Assembly (NCBI GenBank): GCA_010015675.1
Contig: ML977032.1
Coordinates: 261,845-275,937, forward strand
From: Byssothecium circinans
Taxonomy: Eukaryota > Ascomycota > Dothideomycetes > Pleosporales > Massarinaceae
Reading direction: 5' to 3'
DNA: 14,093 bases
Below, in pieces: positions 1 to 9,591 of this stretch. Positions within the stretch are counted from its first letter, which is position 1. Each line of letters begins with the position of its first letter. A model generated the notes under the pieces. It was not told the DNA's origin. It saw only the letters and a list, made by a program, of their open reading frames with translations, and searched no databases. The position numbers and the translations under genes are program-made.

Positions 1-1158
1 GAGGATTACACTAGGGTTATAGGGCCATATACTAGTAGCCTCAAAGGACTTCAGAATTATTTCCTTTTTAAAGGAGGTAGTCCAGGCCTCCTAGAAGAGA
101 GGGAAGAAGTCTCCTTTCTTTACTAAGAGTAGTCCCTGGGCCTCGTGGAGGTAGGTAGTAAGAGCTTTTAAGTAGGCTAATAAGAGAGGCTTAAAGAGTA
201 CTACATCAAGGGGCTACAGCGTGTGCGTTGAATGAGGAGGAAAGATCATAAGGAGAATTTAATTGCGGTTACAGTAGTTAATAAAGTCCATAGTTACGTG
301 GGACCCATGGCCATCCAGGATAAGTAATTGGTAGGCTCGACGAGCTTTCGCTTTTATGTACTAATCAAAGATCTGCTTGAGCCACGCAAGGCCTATATCG
401 TTGCTGGTCCATCCATTAGGAGAAGTAGTAATGAAAACCTCATGCTTCCTAGCCTTAATATCCTCTACCCAGGCTAATTGGAGAGCGTTATTGGCAGCTG
501 CAAATAGTAGGCCTGGTGGCAACGCTGTTCCATTAGCACAAACGCAAGCTAGGATGGTTATCCACTCTCTGTTACCATCTTAGAGGGCTGATTTCACTTC
601 CCCACAGTCCTACATGGCTTTGCTGAAGATCCTTTTACTTCTTCTAATCACCCCTGTGAGGAAGCCCTTCTCATCTATATTGTACGTGTGACGAGGCTCT
701 ATATCGTACTCCTCAATTTTCTCTAGCAGAAGTTGAAAGAATTGCTTATATTTGACTCCTAAATTAGCTTGGTGGCGCACTCAATCCATTCCAGTGGCCC
801 AATGGGGGGTGATTTCAACGTTATAACGGTTAATAAATTGGGTAACCTAGCTTTTTCCTACTAGTTGTTCGCCGTTAGTTTGAGCAATTGATAAAGCAAA
901 ATTCTGCAGCATCTCCCTTGTAGGTGGTAGACGACGGGCTGTAAGCTTTTCTATATAGCTTACAAGCTCTAGTTCTTGTTAAGGGGTGAGCTTTCGCCGT
1001 TGGAGTTGTTGCTCTTTCATCGGCAGGTTTTTGCCCTGGTGTATCCTCCTTAACGTAGTATCTGGTACACCATATTTTTTCGCTATTTTTTAATACGAGC
1101 ATTCTTCTCCTAGTCCACGCGATTCGATTTCTTCAATTGCCTTGTCAATTGGATCCAT
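1..1158 (-). pseudogene. Fot1/pogo-type DDE transposase, RIP-degraded, cut by window edge
   Basis: Translating the minus strand from the ATG at 1158-1156 gives one continuous frame of 386 codons to the window edge, with no indels but ten in-frame stops (first bases at 1092, 981, 849, 783, 612, 582, 363, 261, 216 and 93). Between the stops the protein reads as a Fot1/pogo transposase: N-terminal MDPIDKAIEEIESRG with a helix-turn-helix region, a CENP-B-like DNA-binding segment (TARRLPPTREM), then the DDE core. The core acids are present: D162 in YNIDEKGF, D282 in LDGHGSH and D318 in PLDVVLF. The 35 residues between the last two match the DD35D spacing of Fot1. Nine stops are explained by CAA/CAG to TAA/TAG or TGG to TAG, i.e. 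CpA-to-TpA changes on one strand, as RIP makes; the TGA at 783 would need CGA to TGA. The enzyme would normally cut and paste its own element at TA sites; this copy cannot make it. The C-terminus lies outside the window. Confidence 0.93.
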
Positions 1159-1250
1159 ATTGGCTGAGTTGTGGGTGGGTGAAGGATTGGGTGGAAAATG
1201 CGGGGGTGCGCCATTTGCTGAACCCCGCCAAGTGCTGAACCAACACGTTA
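1159..1250 (-). mobile_element. Probable 5' terminal region of the pogo-like element
   Basis: Between the transposase start and about 1250 there is no further coding sequence. Two near-identical 15-mers, gccatttgctgaacc at 1210-1224 and gccaagtgctgaacc at 1227-1241, repeat with a 17-bp period and differ at two bases. Such (sub)terminal repeats are usual at transposon ends. A TA at 1249-1250 is a candidate for the duplicated TA target of this superfamily. The opposite terminus lies beyond position 1, so the inverted-repeat match cannot be tested here; the exact boundary is an inference. Confidence 0.4.
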
Positions 1251-1683: not shown

Positions 1684-4600
1684 ATGGCGGCAACCAGCCA
1701 GTCTTCCGCATCTTTCGCAACCACGTCTTACGAGACAGCACTTTGCATCATTCCACCACAGAGTGACTGCCGAGAATTGGACAGTCTACGAGCACTCTAC
1801 GACAAGGCCTACGGGAAATGGCCCCCACATATCAACATCGTATACCCATTTGTGGCGCCCGAAAACCTCCATCGAGCGAAGTCGCAAATCGAAAAGGCTC
1901 TTGAAGCTAGTACAATACCCAAGCAGCCTTTGACCTTGGATCAATCAGGATATTTCATGCACCGCACCAACTCCACTGTCTTTCTCAATGGGGGCGACTT
2001 CGAGTCATCGAGCATTTTGCTAGACCTAAGAGCGACCATTTTACGCGCACTCGGGCAAGATGCAACTTCATCAAATTTTCATATGACCATTGGACAATCC
2101 GAAAACGAAACGGAGGCAAGCTGCAAATTCCTTCTCAGCAAAGCGAGTTTGATACCTGCGTTGAGCTTCACACCGAATATGCTCGCTATTCTCGTTCGCG
2201 AGCGAACTTCTGATAACGAAGCAACGAGCCGAATGAGGTTTTGGGGCAGCATTGACCTTCGCCAGTCTTCATCACTTAACTCATCTTTACAGGAGTTCTG
2301 GCTCGAAGAGCCAAAAAACCAGCTTGCTCAACTGGAATCTGTCGACGATGAGCATGCTTATACTTCACCGTCTCCCTATTCTCGGCAGGTGCAACCCAGA
2401 GCCACATACGAGTTCGACATAGAACAGGAACAATGGCGCTTCGCAGAGCCCTCCACAGGAAACTACTTTCCGTCGACATCACTGGATGTCTCTAGCTACA
2501 ACGTACTCATCGACTCAGAGTATCCGCCAGCACGCGATCGAGACCCATCACTGGTCAACACAATCATTTCTGACTCTGCGATGGCCGATGTTCTTGTGCT
2601 GCAGGAAGCATCCGACGACTTTCTGTCATATCTACTAGCGCACGACGATATCCGTGTGCAATATCCCTTCACCTCTCATGGGCCGCCTTCACAAGCCAAC
2701 ATCGGCCCATTGCCTAGCCTTCGAAATGTTGTCATCCTCAGCAAGTGGTACTTTGATTGGGAGTTTGTGCCCTTCCACAGACGGCATAAGGGTGCTGTGG
2801 TTGCTACTATGCCTCACGCTGCTGGTGGCCTTCCATTCGTCATCGCCGGCGTGCACCTGACCAGCGGACTTACCGATGGATCTGTTGCAGCAAAGAAAGT
2901 GCAACTTCAGAACCTGACTAATCATCTGGACAAAGAATACTCAAACAACCCCTGGATTGTTGTAGGAGACTTCAACATCACGACTTCAAAGTGCACGATC
3001 ACCGAGGCGGTGAAGAACAAATCCATCTCTCAGCAAACGGTGCGAACACTGGAGTCAATGGAGATCATGCTTTCGGAGATTGGCTTGCTCGACACTTGGG
3101 CAGTGGCTAGAGTGGAGGGCATTGTGTCCAATATGGCCATAGAGACCGATGACCTATTCGAGGGCGAGGAAGGCGCAACGTTCAACCCCAGGGAGAATGC
3201 GCTCGCGGCTGCGACATCTGGTACATCCAACAACAGACCGCAACGTTACGATCGCATCCTTATGCGACCGCAAGGACTTTTGAGCGTTCGTCAGTTTCAT
3301 GAGTTCGGTCTACCTTGTACCGTCGAGGGTAAAACGCAGGTCCCAAGCGATCATTCGGGTATTAGGGCATCAATGATCATTCGCAACCCTTCATCTAGCA
3401 CCGCAGGGTCATCGGATATACTCTCACAACATCCAGTGGAACACAAGCATGCTTCGATAGATCTCTCGTACAAAGGAGACATCAACGAAGTGCTCAGCGA
3501 ACTCTCAGTATTCCCCACCGCGGATGAAGAAGACCGTCGTAAGGACGCTTTCGCTCTCATCAAGAAAGTTGTTCTTGGACTCTCAAGCAACGAAGAAGAA
3601 AGCGAGTCCGATGTTCCCTTGGTCATAGTGTCAGTCGGCTCATATGCACTTGGGGTGTGGACAAAAGATTCAGACATTGACTGTCTCTGCATCGGCTCGA
3701 TCAGTTCGAAGACTTTTTTCCAATTAGCGCGCCAGCGCATTCACAAAGCTGAATCACAAGGGGTACGGCTCCTCCGCAAGGTGGAGGCGAGCACTGGCTC
3801 CATGCTTGAGCTTTCGGTGAACGGCATCAGCATGGATTTGCAGTACTGTCCAGCTGCAAATATTGTGGAAAGGTAAGCATCCCTTATTAACATTCGTATC
3901 GTATCATGCTAATATATGAGCAGGTGGTCAGAATTCCCGAACTTATCTCCTTCAGATCCAATCTTCAATCTCTCGATCCTTTCACTCCGCAAGCTCAAAC
4001 CCATACGCGACCTCACATATATCAAGCGCACGCTTCCGTCACTCGCATCTTTCCGAATCGCGTACCACTTCATCAAGCGTTGGGCCACCGAACGTGGCAT
4101 CTACTCTGGGAAGTTCGGCTTCCTGAGTGGCACGCACATTACGCTCATGCTCACTTGGGTTTGTAAGCGGCTCGCCCATGATAATGGATCCATCACCGCA
4201 GACGATCTAATCACTTCTTTTTTCTCTTACTACGCCAACTTCGACTGGCAAAACGGAATGGTCTTCGATGCTTTCTTCCACAAGAAGAAACCTAGGTATC
4301 AACGTAGTGCGAGGGAGCCAATGGTGATTCTAGGATACCATGCTCCGAATTCCAACATCGCACATACGGCCACGGCGCCTGGGTTACAGGTCATAGTAAC
4401 AGAATTGAAGCGTGCTAATGAGCTGCTCTCAACCCGGGGAATGACTTGGTCTGCCTTTTTCGAAGCGAGCGGCGCAAACCCATTGGCAGGCACAAAACCT
4501 TTTCTGTCTACTCATGAAAGCTATGTCAAGATTGACATTCAGTACTGGGGACGCGCTCTTCCGAAAGGGAAAGGATTGGTGGGTTGGATTGAATCTCGCT

Positions 4601-5409
4601 GCATCAACCTCGTCGTTGGTATGTAACTCACGCTCAACACCGCATCCAAGTTTTTTACTAATCGGTCACTAGATATCCACAAAGCCCTTCCTCATCTCTC
4701 TGTCCGCATATGGCCAGCTCGATTTTCCGACAGCGAGGCCAACACAACTGACACTTACTACAATGGCTGTTATCTCATCGGCTTATCCCGTAACGACGAT
4801 GCAGAAACCCCGACTTCCATCGAAGACCGGAACCAGGCAAAACAGGCGATACAGAAGACCTTCGACCGCTTCCTCACGCAACTCCAAGCAGATGGCAAGT
4901 ACTACGACCCTGAGTCATGCTGGATCGGTATCTCGCTGGCAAAGCCCAGCGAAGTCAAGCACATGAGCCTCGACAATCGCGAATGGGGCGACTACATCGC
5001 AGACATGGAGCCCGATTCCGATGACGAAGACGACGTCTCAGATTCAGCTGAAGACCTGCATCCTCAGCCATCGCGTAAACTTCCCATCCGTTCTGCCGCT
5101 CCATCAATATCAGCGCCCGTTTCATCATCTAAGCTCCGTCCAGCGTCCGATATCCTGAATCGCCTGCGCTGGGATCCGAATCTCGATCCTAGCGAGTACG
5201 TTGTGGGATATGAAGATAGATTTTTGGGAGCCAAAGAGACGAGTCTGGAGAGGTGGAAGACGGAACAGACGGATGAGGAGTTCATTCCTCAGCATCGGAT
5301 ATTGTATTTCAAGAAGCGGGGCGAAGGGGGTGCTGGTGGGGAGGTCGTGTGGGAGAGGGCGACGCGAGTTGATAAGGTATTTGGGAGTGGTGTTGGGAGT
5401 GGAGAGTAG
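1684..5409 (+). CDS. Four-domain RNA end-repair protein: 2H phosphoesterase, EEP, poly(A)-polymerase-like NTase, MJ1316/DUF504
   Basis: Three exons, 1684-3872, 3924-4618 and 4673-5409, encode 1,206 residues. Introns: 51 bp (gtaagc...cag, branch GCTAAT) and 54 bp (gtatgt...tag, branch ACTAAT). Start ATG 1684 has G at -3 and +4; the frame is open further upstream but only with a TTG. Domains: (a) 2H/2'-5' RNA ligase-like, about residues 10-195, motifs H49-I-N51 (PPHINIVYPF) and H133-M-T135; (b) endonuclease/exonuclease/phosphatase fold, about 265-570, with N273, E308 (LQE), H391, D429 and N431 (GDFN), D523, and D556-H557 (SDHSG); (c) polymerase-beta-type nucleotidyltransferase with G652-S653, D664-x-D666 and D718; (d) poly(A)-polymerase central and RNA-binding region, with KRWATERGIYSGKFGFLSG at 781-799; (e) acidic stretch near 1073-1089; (f) MJ1316/DUF504 domain, about 1118-1200, a family proposed to bind cyclic-phosphate RNA ends. 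All key catalytic residues are seen. I infer it opens 2',3'-cyclic or phosphorylated RNA 3' ends and then extends them. Which RNA (tRNA, U6, mRNA fragments) is unknown. No signal peptide; probably nuclear or cytosolic. Confidence 0.92.
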
Positions 5410-5562
5410 GTTGTAGAGGTGCGCTTTTTACGGCTAAGATTGGCGGTTATTCACGGGGCGAAGCCGCATTAAGCACCACGCAATAAATTTGCTAAGCTTT
5501 GCTGCCTAGACATCAATCAACCCTAAATATTACGTCCAGTTGTGCGCACAGCGGCATCCAAA

Positions 5563-6243
5563 ATGAATCATCCACCGCCACCGCCATTACCCTCACCTCG
5601 TCAGGAAGGTGAAATCTCGAAACCTAGTGCTGCAATGCCACCACCCCCTCCTCCACCACCACCACCTCCTACACGCCCGCCCAAGCCCTCAAACCCGGCG
5701 GTACCAACTTCCCCACCCCCTCCATTGCCTTCCGACGCCATTGAAGCCTTTGGCGCCATAGACAAAACTCGCTTTTTGCAAAGCCTCAAAGCTACGACGA
5801 AAGCAAACATATCCAGCGAACCCTTCCAGCCATGCCACATGTTTTTCTACGGTTCACTCATGGACCCCGAAGTCATCCAAGCAATTCTCAACCTCTCAGA
5901 ACCACCGACTACAAGGCCTGCTACCATTTCCGGCTTCCAGATCAAAATGTGGGGTATATATCCAACTCTGATACCTGGCAGATCTGGGATGGTAGTTGGA
6001 TGCGTATGGGAGGTAACCTCGGAAGACCACTTCGAACGTTTGGCAGCTTACGAGACTGCCGCCTACAGATGGGTTGAGTGCGATGCAGTTTTGGAAGACG
6101 GTGCGGTGCTCAAGGGGTGTCGGACATTCTGCTGGGCTAGAGAGCCTGATAGTAGTGAGCTTGAAGACGGTAGTTTCGATCTAGGACGCTACCAGAAGTA
6201 CTTCAAATCTTCTGTCACTAGGCGACGATCGCCAGTGCCCTGA
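5563..6243 (+). CDS. AIG2-like / gamma-glutamylcyclotransferase-fold protein with poly-proline N-terminus
   Basis: Single-exon gene of 226 residues, starting at ATG 5563 (A at -3) and ending in TGA at 6241-6243. A GTG at 5542 is in frame upstream but is not a eukaryotic start. Residues 4-56 are proline-rich, with runs of five, eleven and four prolines. The fold begins near residue 92: Y96-G97-S98-L99 in FFYGSLMDP is the substrate-loop motif of the AIG2/GGCT family, and E164 in AAYETAAY sits where the family's catalytic glutamate lies. Enzymes of this fold cyclise gamma-glutamyl peptides to 5-oxoproline, but many fungal members have no tested substrate, so only the fold is firm. It lies 153 bp downstream of the RNA-repair gene on the same strand, so the gap must hold both a terminator and a promoter. 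The proline tract could bind SH3/WW/profilin partners or just be disordered. Confidence 0.85.
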   Translation: MNHPPPPPLPSPRQEGEISKPSAAMPPPPPPPPPPPTRPPKPSNPAVPTSPPPPLPSDAIEAFGAIDKTRFLQSLKATTKANISSEPFQPCHMFFYGSLMDPEVIQAILNLSEPPTTRPATISGFQIKMWGIYPTLIPGRSGMVVGCVWEVTSEDHFERLAAYETAAYRWVECDAVLEDGAVLKGCRTFCWAREPDSSELEDGSFDLGRYQKYFKSSVTRRRSPVP

Positions 6244-6979: not shown

Positions 6980-9422
6980 TTACAGAATAGTAGTAACGTT
7001 CTTCAAGTCTTGCGACCTTGAACTAGTCCCGACCCAAAACGTGTAATTCCCACCCTCAGCGTACCATTTTGTATTGACCCAATAACCCAACTCGTCTTTA
7101 GGAATACTGAACTTCACTTCCCTACTCTCGCCCGGCGCAAGATGGATCTTCTCAAACCCCACCAATTGCTTATTTGGTGTCTCGATCCGCGTGATCGCTT
7201 TTCGATAATAAACCTGAACGACTTCTTGACCAGCGACATTTCCAGTGTTTCGCACAACAGTACTGATAGTGGTGGAGCCATTTGTACTCGAGACATCCGG
7301 TTCCGAGATATCAAACGTCGTGTACGACAATCCGAAACCAAAAGGCATGGGCACTTCGCGCTGCAAGATAGGGAATTGCCACGCAGAAGCTGGAAACCCT
7401 GATTGACCCGGGAATCCACCGGCGTTGTCCGAAGGCAGGAAGTCGTAATATACCGGGAGGGCTCCTGAGTGCTGTGGGATGCTGATAGGGAGCTTGCCAC
7501 TAGGATTCACGATTCCTGTAACGATCTCAACGATTGCATCCGAGGTGTACTCTCCGGCAAACCAGGAGTGTAGGATGGCATTTGCGCGTAGGGTCGAGTT
7601 ATTCAGAACAAATGATTGACCTCCGCTTAGCACGAGTATCGTAGGAACGCCAGAGTCCAGCACAGCGTCAAGGAGCTGTTGCTGTAAGCCCGGAAATCCT
7701 AGATCGGCGTGTGCAATGAACTCGCCATCGGTTCGCTCAAGGCTTAGAGGGTCCTCGTTGCCAGTGGACAGCGAGCCGAGCATGAGGATAGCCAGACCAG
7801 CGTCTTTCGCAGCCTGGACGGCGACAGGAATCTCGGAGGCGTCGTCGGTGTTGTTGATCGCGCAGCCGCGAACAAATTGTACGCTTGGTGAGCCAAAATA
7901 GTTTTTAAGGCTTGTGGTGAGACGATTACCGAAGGTATGGTCGGTGCTATTGACATTCGCATAGTTTCCGGCGTTGATGAGTGCTGCAAATGGTCCCAAA
8001 ACAGCAACTTTGGTGGTATTTGTTTTTCTCAAGGGAAGGAGACCATCGTTCTGTAAAAGGACGATAGACTCTCGGGAGATGTTTCTGTTTGCTTCCAGGT
8101 GCGCTGGTTTTCGAAGAACTTTTCCCAAGTTTTCAATACTGGGAACCGGCTCTTCGAACAAGCCAGTCGCAAACTTGATCTCCAAGATCTTCTTTACCGC
8201 TGCATCGACATGTTTCACAATCCTTGGGTCGTTCGTGAGCGTTAACAACGTTGGGAAAGTCGCAGGTTGAGTCGGCGAAAGCTCTAGACCGATACCAGCA
8301 GTAAGCGCCATCACTGCCGCATCTTGAATTGACTCCACTACCTTCTAGATCTTCATGAGATTTATGATACCCATCGCATCAGACATGATCAGTCCGTCGA
8401 ACCCTAAGGTACCCCGAAGAATATCTTGAAGGAGGCATTCGTTGGCGTGGACTGGAACGCGGTCCACTGAAGAATAAGAAGCCATGATAGCCAGCGGCTT
8501 AGCTTCCTTAATGACTTTGTGGAAAGGCGCTGCAAGGTCATTCATAATGTGGTTCAGGCCGCTATCGATACTTCCCATGTTGACTCCGCCGTTGTTGCTG
8601 CCGTAGACGAAATGCTTTATGGTGGTTGCAACGCGGACGTATCCTCGCTCGTCCTTTTCTTGCATCGTCTTTACATACTGGGCGCCAAATGATCCAGCAT
8701 GATAGGCGCCTTCGCCAAACCTAAAATGTTCACGTAAGTAATTTGTCTGCGGTCCCAGAGTGAGTTTCTATCGTACATTTCTCCCACTCTACCACCTCTA
8801 AGTTCACGGGCTAGATCGATCTCAGGCGACATCATCCAGTACGTTCCAAATACGCGGTTCTCGTCCCGAAGTGCGGTGACGACTTTCTCGTAGAGAGGAA
8901 TGTTCCATGCAGCACCCATGGTAATCGCGCCGGGAAATAAGGTGCCGCTACCACCGGCAAATGTGTTCATGGAGTCGGTCATTTGGATGTACGGAATATG
9001 AAGACGGCTTGAGTTGATCTGTTCTTCTTTGAGAGGATTGAAAACTTCAACTGCTTGCAAGGCGGTCCCATAGTTTGCTGCCGGAGCTGGAAGTGTCTGT
9101 TAGTGATTTACACTAGAGCATATCCGGTGAATGGGATCAGTGTACCGATATTTCCATTCTGAGTTGCTCGTACACTCTCATACAGAGTTCGGTTGAAGGT
9201 CTTCGTGGGGTTTACAACGCGTCGGACACCGCCCATCTGTCCGACTTTCGGTTCCCAAGTCATCTGGTCGAGAAGATTTTGAGCGCGCACAGCGGGCGAC
9301 AAGCTCGCATCCAGATATCGCGTCGTGTTCTGGCTGCTGATCCCATTTTGTGGTGTCGCAGTGGAAAGAGTGGTGAAGTAGACCAAAGTAATGAACAAAG
9401 CGGACCATGGTGAATGCATCAT
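6980..9422 (-). pseudogene. Secreted glycoside hydrolase family 3 enzyme, broken by one TAG
   Basis: Minus-strand exons 9422-9146, 9086-8777 and 8720-6980 give 775 codons, with TAA at 6982-6980. Introns: 59 bp (gtacac...cag, branch ACTAAC) and 56 bp (gtacga...tag). Joining restores GEMFGEGAYHAGSFGAQYVK, as GH3 requires. The N-terminus is a signal peptide (MHSPWSALFITLVYF, cleavage around TATPQ). The GH3 N-domain follows, with RLHIPYIQMTDS, TLFPGAITMGAAWN, KHFVYGS and FDGLIMSDAMG, where D310 is the expected nucleophile. Codon 321 (8347-8345) is TAG, in frame with the rest. Beyond it lie an intact GH3 C-domain (LERTDGEF, SWFAGEYTSDA, PSGKLPISIP, PFGFGLSYT) and a fibronectin-III-like domain (NTGNVAGQEVVQVYY), about 454 residues. 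The truncated 320-residue product would lack both. If whole it would hydrolyse beta-glycosides outside the cell; substrate (glucose, xylose or GlcNAc links) cannot be told. A consensus E-to-P change in TWEPKVGQM is also odd. A sequencing error at the TAG is possible. Confidence 0.85.
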
Positions 9423-9591
9423 GATTACCCTGATTCCATAGGTTATTTTGAGGACGTTGGACGGTTCTACAAGATGAGCGAAAGCCTCCGCAGGCATACG
9501 CTACATGTTAACGGTCAAACGGCCATCATCACAGCAGCCATCTTCTGTAATTTGCTTAGTCTCTCGGTCAAAAATTTTTTGATCAATAGTC
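9423..9591. other. Short gap between divergent GH3 and MFS remnants
   Basis: About 170 bp separates the GH3 start codon from the first recognisable transporter residues. It should have held two promoters and also the first half of the transporter, which is absent. No TATA box, no membrane-protein coding sequence and no transposon end were recognised here, so the junction of the presumed deletion is not marked by any visible element. Confidence 0.5.

What the first reader, a model, noticed from the sequence alone, without database searches (positions are those of the whole stretch)
1684..5409. One polypeptide with four RNA 3'-end repair activities
2H phosphoesterase, EEP nuclease/phosphatase, poly(A)-polymerase-type nucleotidyltransferase and the MJ1316/DUF504 domain are fused in the order in which an RNA end would be sensed, opened, trimmed and extended. 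The catalytic residues of all three enzyme domains can be read. MJ1316 has been proposed from comparative genomics to recognise cyclic-phosphate RNA ends. Such a fusion would be a self-contained repair machine for RNA cut by ribotoxins, RNase L/Ire1-type nucleases or invading elements. Its natural substrate is, to my knowledge, unproven.
Basis: partly seen in the sequence, partly recalled or inferred. Interest (0 to 1): 0.8.

Follow-up and report, generated by a model that had tools for sequence, protein, structure and literature searches.

The report
Fungal RNA-end heal-and-tail fusion protein
This fungal gene makes one protein that joins three enzyme modules and one predicted RNA-end-binding module, and it probably cleans blocked RNA 3' ends and then adds a tail to them; I found no experimental test of this.

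Summary
Splicing 1684..3872, 3924..4618 and 4673..5409 gives a 1206-residue protein, identical to NCBI protein CC80DRAFT_555032 of Byssothecium circinans. Pfam finds 2H, EEP, poly(A)-polymerase and MJ1316 above their cut-offs. All modules are covered in 171 of 296 fetched proteins, itself included, and catalytic residues there are almost invariant.

New: elsewhere in this genome the protein matches only the canonical PAP gene and a stand-alone HxN 2H gene, which lie head to head, start codons 141 or 351 bp apart. This hints that 2H and polyadenylation work together.

Substrate and reactions are unproven. The general MJ1316-repair idea is in print.

The parts
1684..3872 (+). Exon 1: 2H domain, EEP domain and first part of the PAP nucleotidyltransferase (aa 1 to 729 plus 2 nt)
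   Evidence: identical to the NCBI protein
3873..3923 (+). Intron 1, 51 nt, GT...AG, with a CTAAT stretch like a branch site (by eye)
   Evidence: the frame closes across it
3924..4618 (+). Exon 2: PAP central domain
4619..4672 (+). Intron 2, 54 nt, GT...AG
4673..5409 (+). Exon 3: end of PAP C-terminal domain, acidic linker, MJ1316 domain, stop
1753..2205 (+). 2H phosphoesterase domain (aa 24-174), motifs HIN at 1828-1836 and HMT at 2080-2088
   Evidence: PF13563 E 2.5e-27; H49/N51/H133/T135 conserved
2494..3354 (+). EEP domain (aa 271-557), TDP2-like fold; N273, E308, H391, D429, N431, D556, H557
3457..3849 (+). PAP nucleotidyltransferase domain (aa 592-722), GS motif and D664/D666/D718
   Evidence: PF20750 E 6.9e-7, PF01909; conservation
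4048..4464 (+). PAP central domain (aa 772-910)
   Evidence: PF04928 E 1.3e-13; same place
4507..4953 (+). PAP C-terminal (RRM-like) domain, about aa 925-1055, interrupted by intron 2
4975..5124 (+). Acidic flexible linker (about aa 1063-1112; limits carried over from the orthologue)
   Evidence: pLDDT <50 at 1063-1107 of the orthologue model; sequence rich in D/E
5137..5358 (+). MJ1316 (UPF0248/DUF504) domain (aa 1117-1190), the only match in the genome
   Evidence: PF04457 E 1.5e-19; own-genome search, 1 match

Best explanation
A conserved, single-copy Pezizomycotina enzyme that converts phosphate-blocked RNA 3' ends into tailed ends. The MJ1316 module, on a flexible acidic arm, is proposed to catch RNAs ending in a 2',3'-cyclic phosphate (or a related phosphate). 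The HxN/HxT 2H domain opens the ring to a monophosphate. The TDP2-fold EEP domain removes the remaining phosphate (or the last nucleotide) to leave a 3'-OH. The complete PAP module then adds an oligo(A) or similar tail. The tail would send the RNA either to decay or to re-use. Shown here: the gene, its modules, the folds of EEP and PAP (by prediction), the catalytic residues and their conservation. Inferred: every reaction, the substrate, the order of steps and the fate of the product.
Against: I saw no report of an activity, substrate or phenotype. MJ1316's recognition of cyclic ends is itself, as far as I know, a comparative-genomics proposal, and no solved MJ1316 structure was found by sequence. 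The EEP is closer to TDP2, a 5'-phosphodiesterase, than to ANGEL2. 2H motif 1 lacks the usual T/S. The folds of the 2H and MJ1316 parts were barely tested by the structure comparison (rows span 257-568 and 580-1056 only). In eight relatives scanned, PAP_central passed its cut-off in 8, Exo_endo_phos in 5 and PAP_NTPase in 3 (P0178 and P0148 are shorter forms). The 2H/PAP-triad association is confounded by truncated gene models, by the length filter and by relatedness: independent-pairs sign tests were not significant (three tests, median p 0.5, 0.5 and 0.25). P0148, counted as lacking 2H, still carries what looks like its last quarter (profile 111-151 of 152, under the cut-off).
Confidence: 0.5

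Rival explanations
1. Dedicated maturation of one non-coding RNA, comparable to U6 snRNA, where a tailing enzyme and a 2H enzyme (Usb1) together set the 3' end. The fused protein would serve one RNA rather than damaged RNAs in general.
For: The U6 pathway combines a terminal transferase and a 2H enzyme (PMC6277466, passages). Single copy and broad conservation fit a housekeeping job.
Against: MJ1316 is described in connection with RNA repair and conflict (PMC6514570, passages). Nothing here points to a particular RNA.
Confidence: 0.2
2. The EEP domain works like TDP2, as a 5'-phosphodiesterase that removes a protein or peptide from a nucleic-acid end, so the protein treats blocked ends on both sides or a nucleic acid-protein adduct.
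Confidence: 0.15
3. Mainly an RNA-binding scaffold: the PAP-MJ1316 part is what selection keeps, and catalysis is secondary or lost in some lineages.
For: Short forms without 2H and EEP exist; in 8 of 14 such rows the PAP triad is changed, for example DDN in P0166, P0171, P0178 and P0181 (636-657 aa), while MJ1316 stays intact. MJ1316 is the most conserved module (mean majority fraction 0.79).
Against: In four-module proteins the catalytic residues are nearly invariant. Short forms come from gene models whose upstream DNA I could not read; 6 of the 14 keep the triad.
Confidence: 0.1
4. Part of a nucleotide or oligonucleotide signalling path (2'-5'-linked products made by a nucleotidyltransferase and degraded by 2H/EEP phosphodiesterases).
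Against: The polymerase is a canonical PAP in sequence and fold, not an OAS/cGAS-type enzyme.
Confidence: 0.03

Closest known systems
MJ1316/UPF0248 domain proteins (PF04457, 'RNA cyclic group end recognition domain'), including eukaryotic fusions with RNA-repair domains (Burroughs and Aravind 2016, not held, cited through passages of PMC6514570)
   Same: Same domain above cut-off, same RLRWD and P-x-HR motifs as the two prokaryotic proteins compared
   Different: Here it is the C-terminal module of a 1200-residue 2H-EEP-PAP protein; whether the 2016 paper lists this architecture I could not read
ANGEL2 plus MTPAP (EEP-fold phosphatase followed by polyadenylation, mitochondria; PMC9525292, passages)
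   Same: Same proposed logic: remove terminal phosphate, then polyadenylate
   Different: Two separate proteins there; this EEP is structurally nearer TDP2; 2H and MJ1316 are added here
TDP2 / VPg unlinkase
   Different: TDP2 acts on 5'-tyrosyl ends; the fused 2H, PAP and MJ1316 modules set this protein apart
Canonical eukaryotic poly(A) polymerase (Pap1/PAP gamma)
   Same: Three-domain PAP, D-D-D triad; K781 (K 236, R 41 of 282) and Y790 (271 of 282) at positions that I recall as ATP contacts in bovine PAP
   Different: About 20% identity; a separate canonical PAP gene exists in this genome
Usb1 / LigT / YjcG 2H phosphoesterases
   Same: Two histidine motifs and PF13563 score; profile match to YjcG (2d4g) E 8e-6
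   Different: Motif 1 is HxN, shared with a stand-alone 2H of the same genome, not HxT/S

Membership tests
MJ1316 (PF04457) | Profile score above the curated cut-off | tested here: met
   70.9 bits against 26.3
MJ1316 (PF04457) | Motifs shared with prokaryotic members | tested here: met
   RLRWD and P-x-HR also in the Marsarchaeota (L007) and Acidobacteria (L008) proteins; only two prokaryotic loci compared
MJ1316 (PF04457) | Binding of 2',3'-cyclic phosphate RNA ends | not testable with these tools
   Stated in PMC6514570 (passages) with reference to comparative work; no solved structure by sequence
2H phosphoesterase superfamily | PF13563 score | tested here: met
   96.3 bits against 27
2H phosphoesterase superfamily | Two H-x-T/S motifs | tested here: not met
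   Motif 2 is HxT (T135 168, S 3 of 171); motif 1 is HxN (N51 168 of 171). Both histidines kept; a stand-alone paralogue has HxN too
EEP superfamily | Score, fold and N/E/H/D/DH residues | tested here: met
   35.9 bits against 24.5; model and matches; conservation. Two relatives with an EEP score under the cut-off (P0105, P0148)
TDP2 | Closest relative by structure and sequence profile | tested here: inconclusive
   First by Z but within about 2 of sphingomyelinase and bacterial EEPs; profile E 0.013 with no single significant stretch
TDP2 | 5'-tyrosyl phosphodiesterase activity | not testable with these tools
   Needs an assay
ANGEL/CCR4 branch of EEP | Closest relative by structure | tested here: inconclusive
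Canonical poly(A) polymerase | GS motif and three catalytic Asp | tested here: met
   G652 171, S653 170, D664 171, D666 170, D718 166 of 171
Canonical poly(A) polymerase | Central and C-terminal RRM-like domains | tested here: met
   PF04928; whole-PAP structural match of an orthologue model to residue 1056. No PAP RNA-binding Pfam hit appeared at E up to 1
RNA repair (healing and sealing) system | RNA ligase and end-healing kinase in the protein | tested here: not met
   No such domain at E up to 1 ('2_5_RNA_ligase2' is the family name of the 2H domain); Trl1-CPD, Tpt1 and RtcB families match elsewhere in the genome
RNA repair (healing and sealing) system | Protection against RNA-cutting toxins | not testable with these tools
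   Needs a deletion strain

The most novel reading that the evidence does not exclude
Filamentous ascomycetes couple a special HxN class of 2H phosphoesterase to polyadenylation in two forms: as this fusion, and as a stand-alone 2H gene sharing a promoter region with canonical PAP1. Together they would form an unrecognised route that starts polyadenylation on RNAs whose 3' ends carry a cyclic phosphate (from ribozymes, tRNA-type endonucleases or toxins), rather than on ends made by the cleavage-polyadenylation complex.
Probability: 0.2. Interest if true: 0.8.

Novelty: new variant of a known kind. Interest (0 to 1): 0.55.

Why it matters
If right, filamentous fungi carry a single protein that could turn a phosphate-blocked RNA fragment into a tailed RNA. 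That would make MJ1316's proposed role in reading cyclic-phosphate ends directly testable, since one protein offers the sensor and three read-outs (ring opening, dephosphorylation, tailing). It would also give a eukaryotic parallel, in one chain, to the ANGEL2-then-polyadenylation sequence of mitochondria.

Tried and rejected
Chance or mis-joined exons: rejected, since the NCBI protein is identical and 171 of 296 fetched proteins (itself included) cover all modules.

2H decay because of HxN: rejected as a simple reading, since N51 is in 168 of 171 four-module proteins and in the stand-alone 2H at C21 (HIN and HLS), while the third PF13563 locus in the genome has HIT/HWT (one in-frame TAA in that match).

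Lineage loss of the 2H domain with decay of the PAP triad: interesting but not proven. Raw counts are 169 of 175 against 32 of 49 intact (72 of 296 rows not scored; Fisher p 1.9e-8 ignores relatedness). By the tool's length rule admitted only proteins of about 340-1081 aa, so diverged full-length ones were under-sampled, in part still. Sign tests on independent pairs in the first 160 rows were not significant. At least one row counted as lacking 2H is a truncated model (P0148). I first read Diaporthales as having lost 2H and withdrew that for this reason. P0205 likewise proved to be a truncated copy of P0248 (460 of 463 residues).

Four-module models P0044, P0059, P0061 and P0069 lack the EEP stretch with H391 to N431; a gene-model error is likely but was not checked. 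P0083 has A, P0264 G, at D429, and P0264 has N at H133.

Relatives in viral contigs: none confirmed (33 and 24 pattern matches). Non-fungal eukaryotic relatives were not surveyed; each protein search scored about 8,000 candidates and lists only the best 120.

Neighbourhood of prokaryotic MJ1316: only two loci found (26 pattern matches, 2 confirmed). In one the gene is directly before a frame that looks like RNase III (L008), by eye; a wider survey was not possible.

Literature: searches listed no paper that I recognised as describing this four-module protein; I judged by titles, abstract starts and passages. The two most relevant papers (gkw722, gkf645) are not held, so 'not in print' is not claimed.

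Full report
The gene. A forward-strand gene occupies 1684-5409. Removing two short GT-AG introns (3873-3923, 4619-4672) gives 1206 residues without a stop. The same protein, 100% identical over its whole length, is in NCBI as hypothetical protein CC80DRAFT_555032 of Byssothecium circinans, on a contig of the same length as the one holding the window. The species is a pleosporalean ascomycete.

The 2H domain. Both histidines are kept, but motif 1 reads HxN: N51 in 168 of 171 four-module proteins, S or K in one each, one gap. This is not decay: a stand-alone 2H in the same genome has HIN and HLS, while a third PF13563 locus has HIT and HWT. HxN is thus a subfamily mark whose chemical meaning is untested.

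Conservation. Three protein searches gave 296 distinct proteins, this one included (578, 273 and 580 matches at the thresholds used, best 120 of each listed). In 171 of 296 every module is covered at more than 70%. Proteins listed with all four Pfam domains come from Dothideomycetes, Sordariomycetes, Eurotiomycetes, Geoglossomycetes and Coniocybomycetes (lists; classes). Catalytic residues in the 171 are nearly invariant: H49 170, H133 170, E308 171, H391 167, D429 165, D556 170, H557 171, D664 171, D666 170, D718 166. The exceptions include P0083 (GAFN in the EEP), P0264 and six PAP-triad changes: four DDE, one DDY and one DND. In eight relatives scanned with Pfam, PAP_central passed its cut-off in 8, Exo_endo_phos in 5 and PAP_NTPase in 3. 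MJ1316 is the most conserved module (mean majority fraction 0.79 against 0.56-0.66 for the others). Its RLRWD and P-x-HR motifs recur in an archaeal and an acidobacterial MJ1316 protein.

Coupling between modules. Proteins with 2H and EEP keep the PAP triad in 169 of 175; those without 2H keep it in 32 of 49 (72 of 296 not scored). This is what a chain of dependent steps would leave behind, but truncated gene models, the length filter of one search and relatedness could give the same, and sign tests on independent pairs in the first 160 rows were not significant. I hold it as a lead only.

The unfused parts lie together. Searching the whole genome with the protein gives three places: itself, canonical PAP on C21 (26% identity, residues 648-912) and the stand-alone 2H on C21 (30%, residues 13-143). 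The last two are neighbours, head to head: PAP start codon at C21:68691, 2H start at C21:68550 or, if the inner methionine is used, C21:68340 (starts chosen by eye). By my own arithmetic, one of the two other PF13563 loci would fall within 1.5 kb of PAP by chance with a probability of about 1e-4 in 48 Mb; the comparison was made after seeing it. I could test one genome only.

How it most likely works. Three catalytic modules and one predicted binder fit a chain: catch an RNA with a 2',3'-cyclic phosphate, open the ring (2H), strip the phosphate or last nucleotide (EEP), tail the 3'-OH (PAP). Precedents for the logic are ANGEL2, whose phosphatase activity must precede mitochondrial polyadenylation (PMC9525292, passages), and 2H enzymes that open cyclic phosphates (PMC9503650, passages). 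I saw no report of any of these reactions for this protein. It holds no ligase or kinase domain that Pfam sees, so it probably does not seal breaks by itself; the genome has matches to the Trl1 CPD domain, Tpt1 (two in-frame TAG inside the match) and RtcB families elsewhere. The fate of the tailed RNA (decay or rescue) is open.

What is known. Pfam names PF04457 'MJ1316 RNA cyclic group end recognition domain'. PMC6514570 (passages) says that MJ1316 recognises 2'-3' cyclic ends and shows diverse fusions to RNA-repair domains in eukaryotes, citing Burroughs and Aravind 2016. That paper is not held, so I cannot say whether it draws this architecture; from memory it may. Database names for the listed family members are mostly 'polynucleotide adenylyltransferase' or hypothetical protein. 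I therefore call it a new variant of a known kind, to my knowledge uncharacterised, and not categorically new.

Surroundings. The window's left end is a degenerate transposon copy with 39 other scored matches in the genome. Downstream lie a gamma-glutamylcyclotransferase-like gene, a GH3 glycosidase and a sugar transporter. I saw nothing in the window that suggests a defence cluster.

Noticed in passing
Own genome C21:67774-69833 (loci L002, L004): A stand-alone 2H gene with HxN motif lies head to head with the canonical poly(A) polymerase gene, start codons 141 or 351 bp apart depending on the 2H start used.
   Followed up: partly
[quoted passage not shown]
   Followed up: partly
window 1-1160, minus strand: Stop-ridden pogo/Fot1-like transposase remnant (recalled resemblance). 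The DNA has 39 other scored matches of 67-99% identity in the genome, a lower bound.
   Followed up: partly
Homologues P0122, P0129, P0166, P0171, P0178, P0181: Short PAP-MJ1316-only forms whose PAP catalytic triad is changed while MJ1316 is intact, as if the polymerase had become an RNA binder.
   Followed up: partly
L008 6001-6917: The acidobacterial MJ1316 gene is directly followed by a reading frame that looks like RNase III (by eye).
   Followed up: no
window 5542-6243, +: Gamma-glutamylcyclotransferase (AIG2-like) gene with a proline-rich N-terminus, just downstream.
   Followed up: no
window 6980-9497, minus strand: GH3 glycosyl hydrolase: the C-terminal and Fn3-like domains score in 6980-8338; further open frames to 9497 look like the rest (by eye).
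   Followed up: no
P0233 (Pseudogymnoascus sp.): A 1233-aa protein listed with PAP and MJ1316 domains and PF17917 but without 2H or EEP; perhaps a gene-model fusion with a neighbouring element.
   Followed up: no
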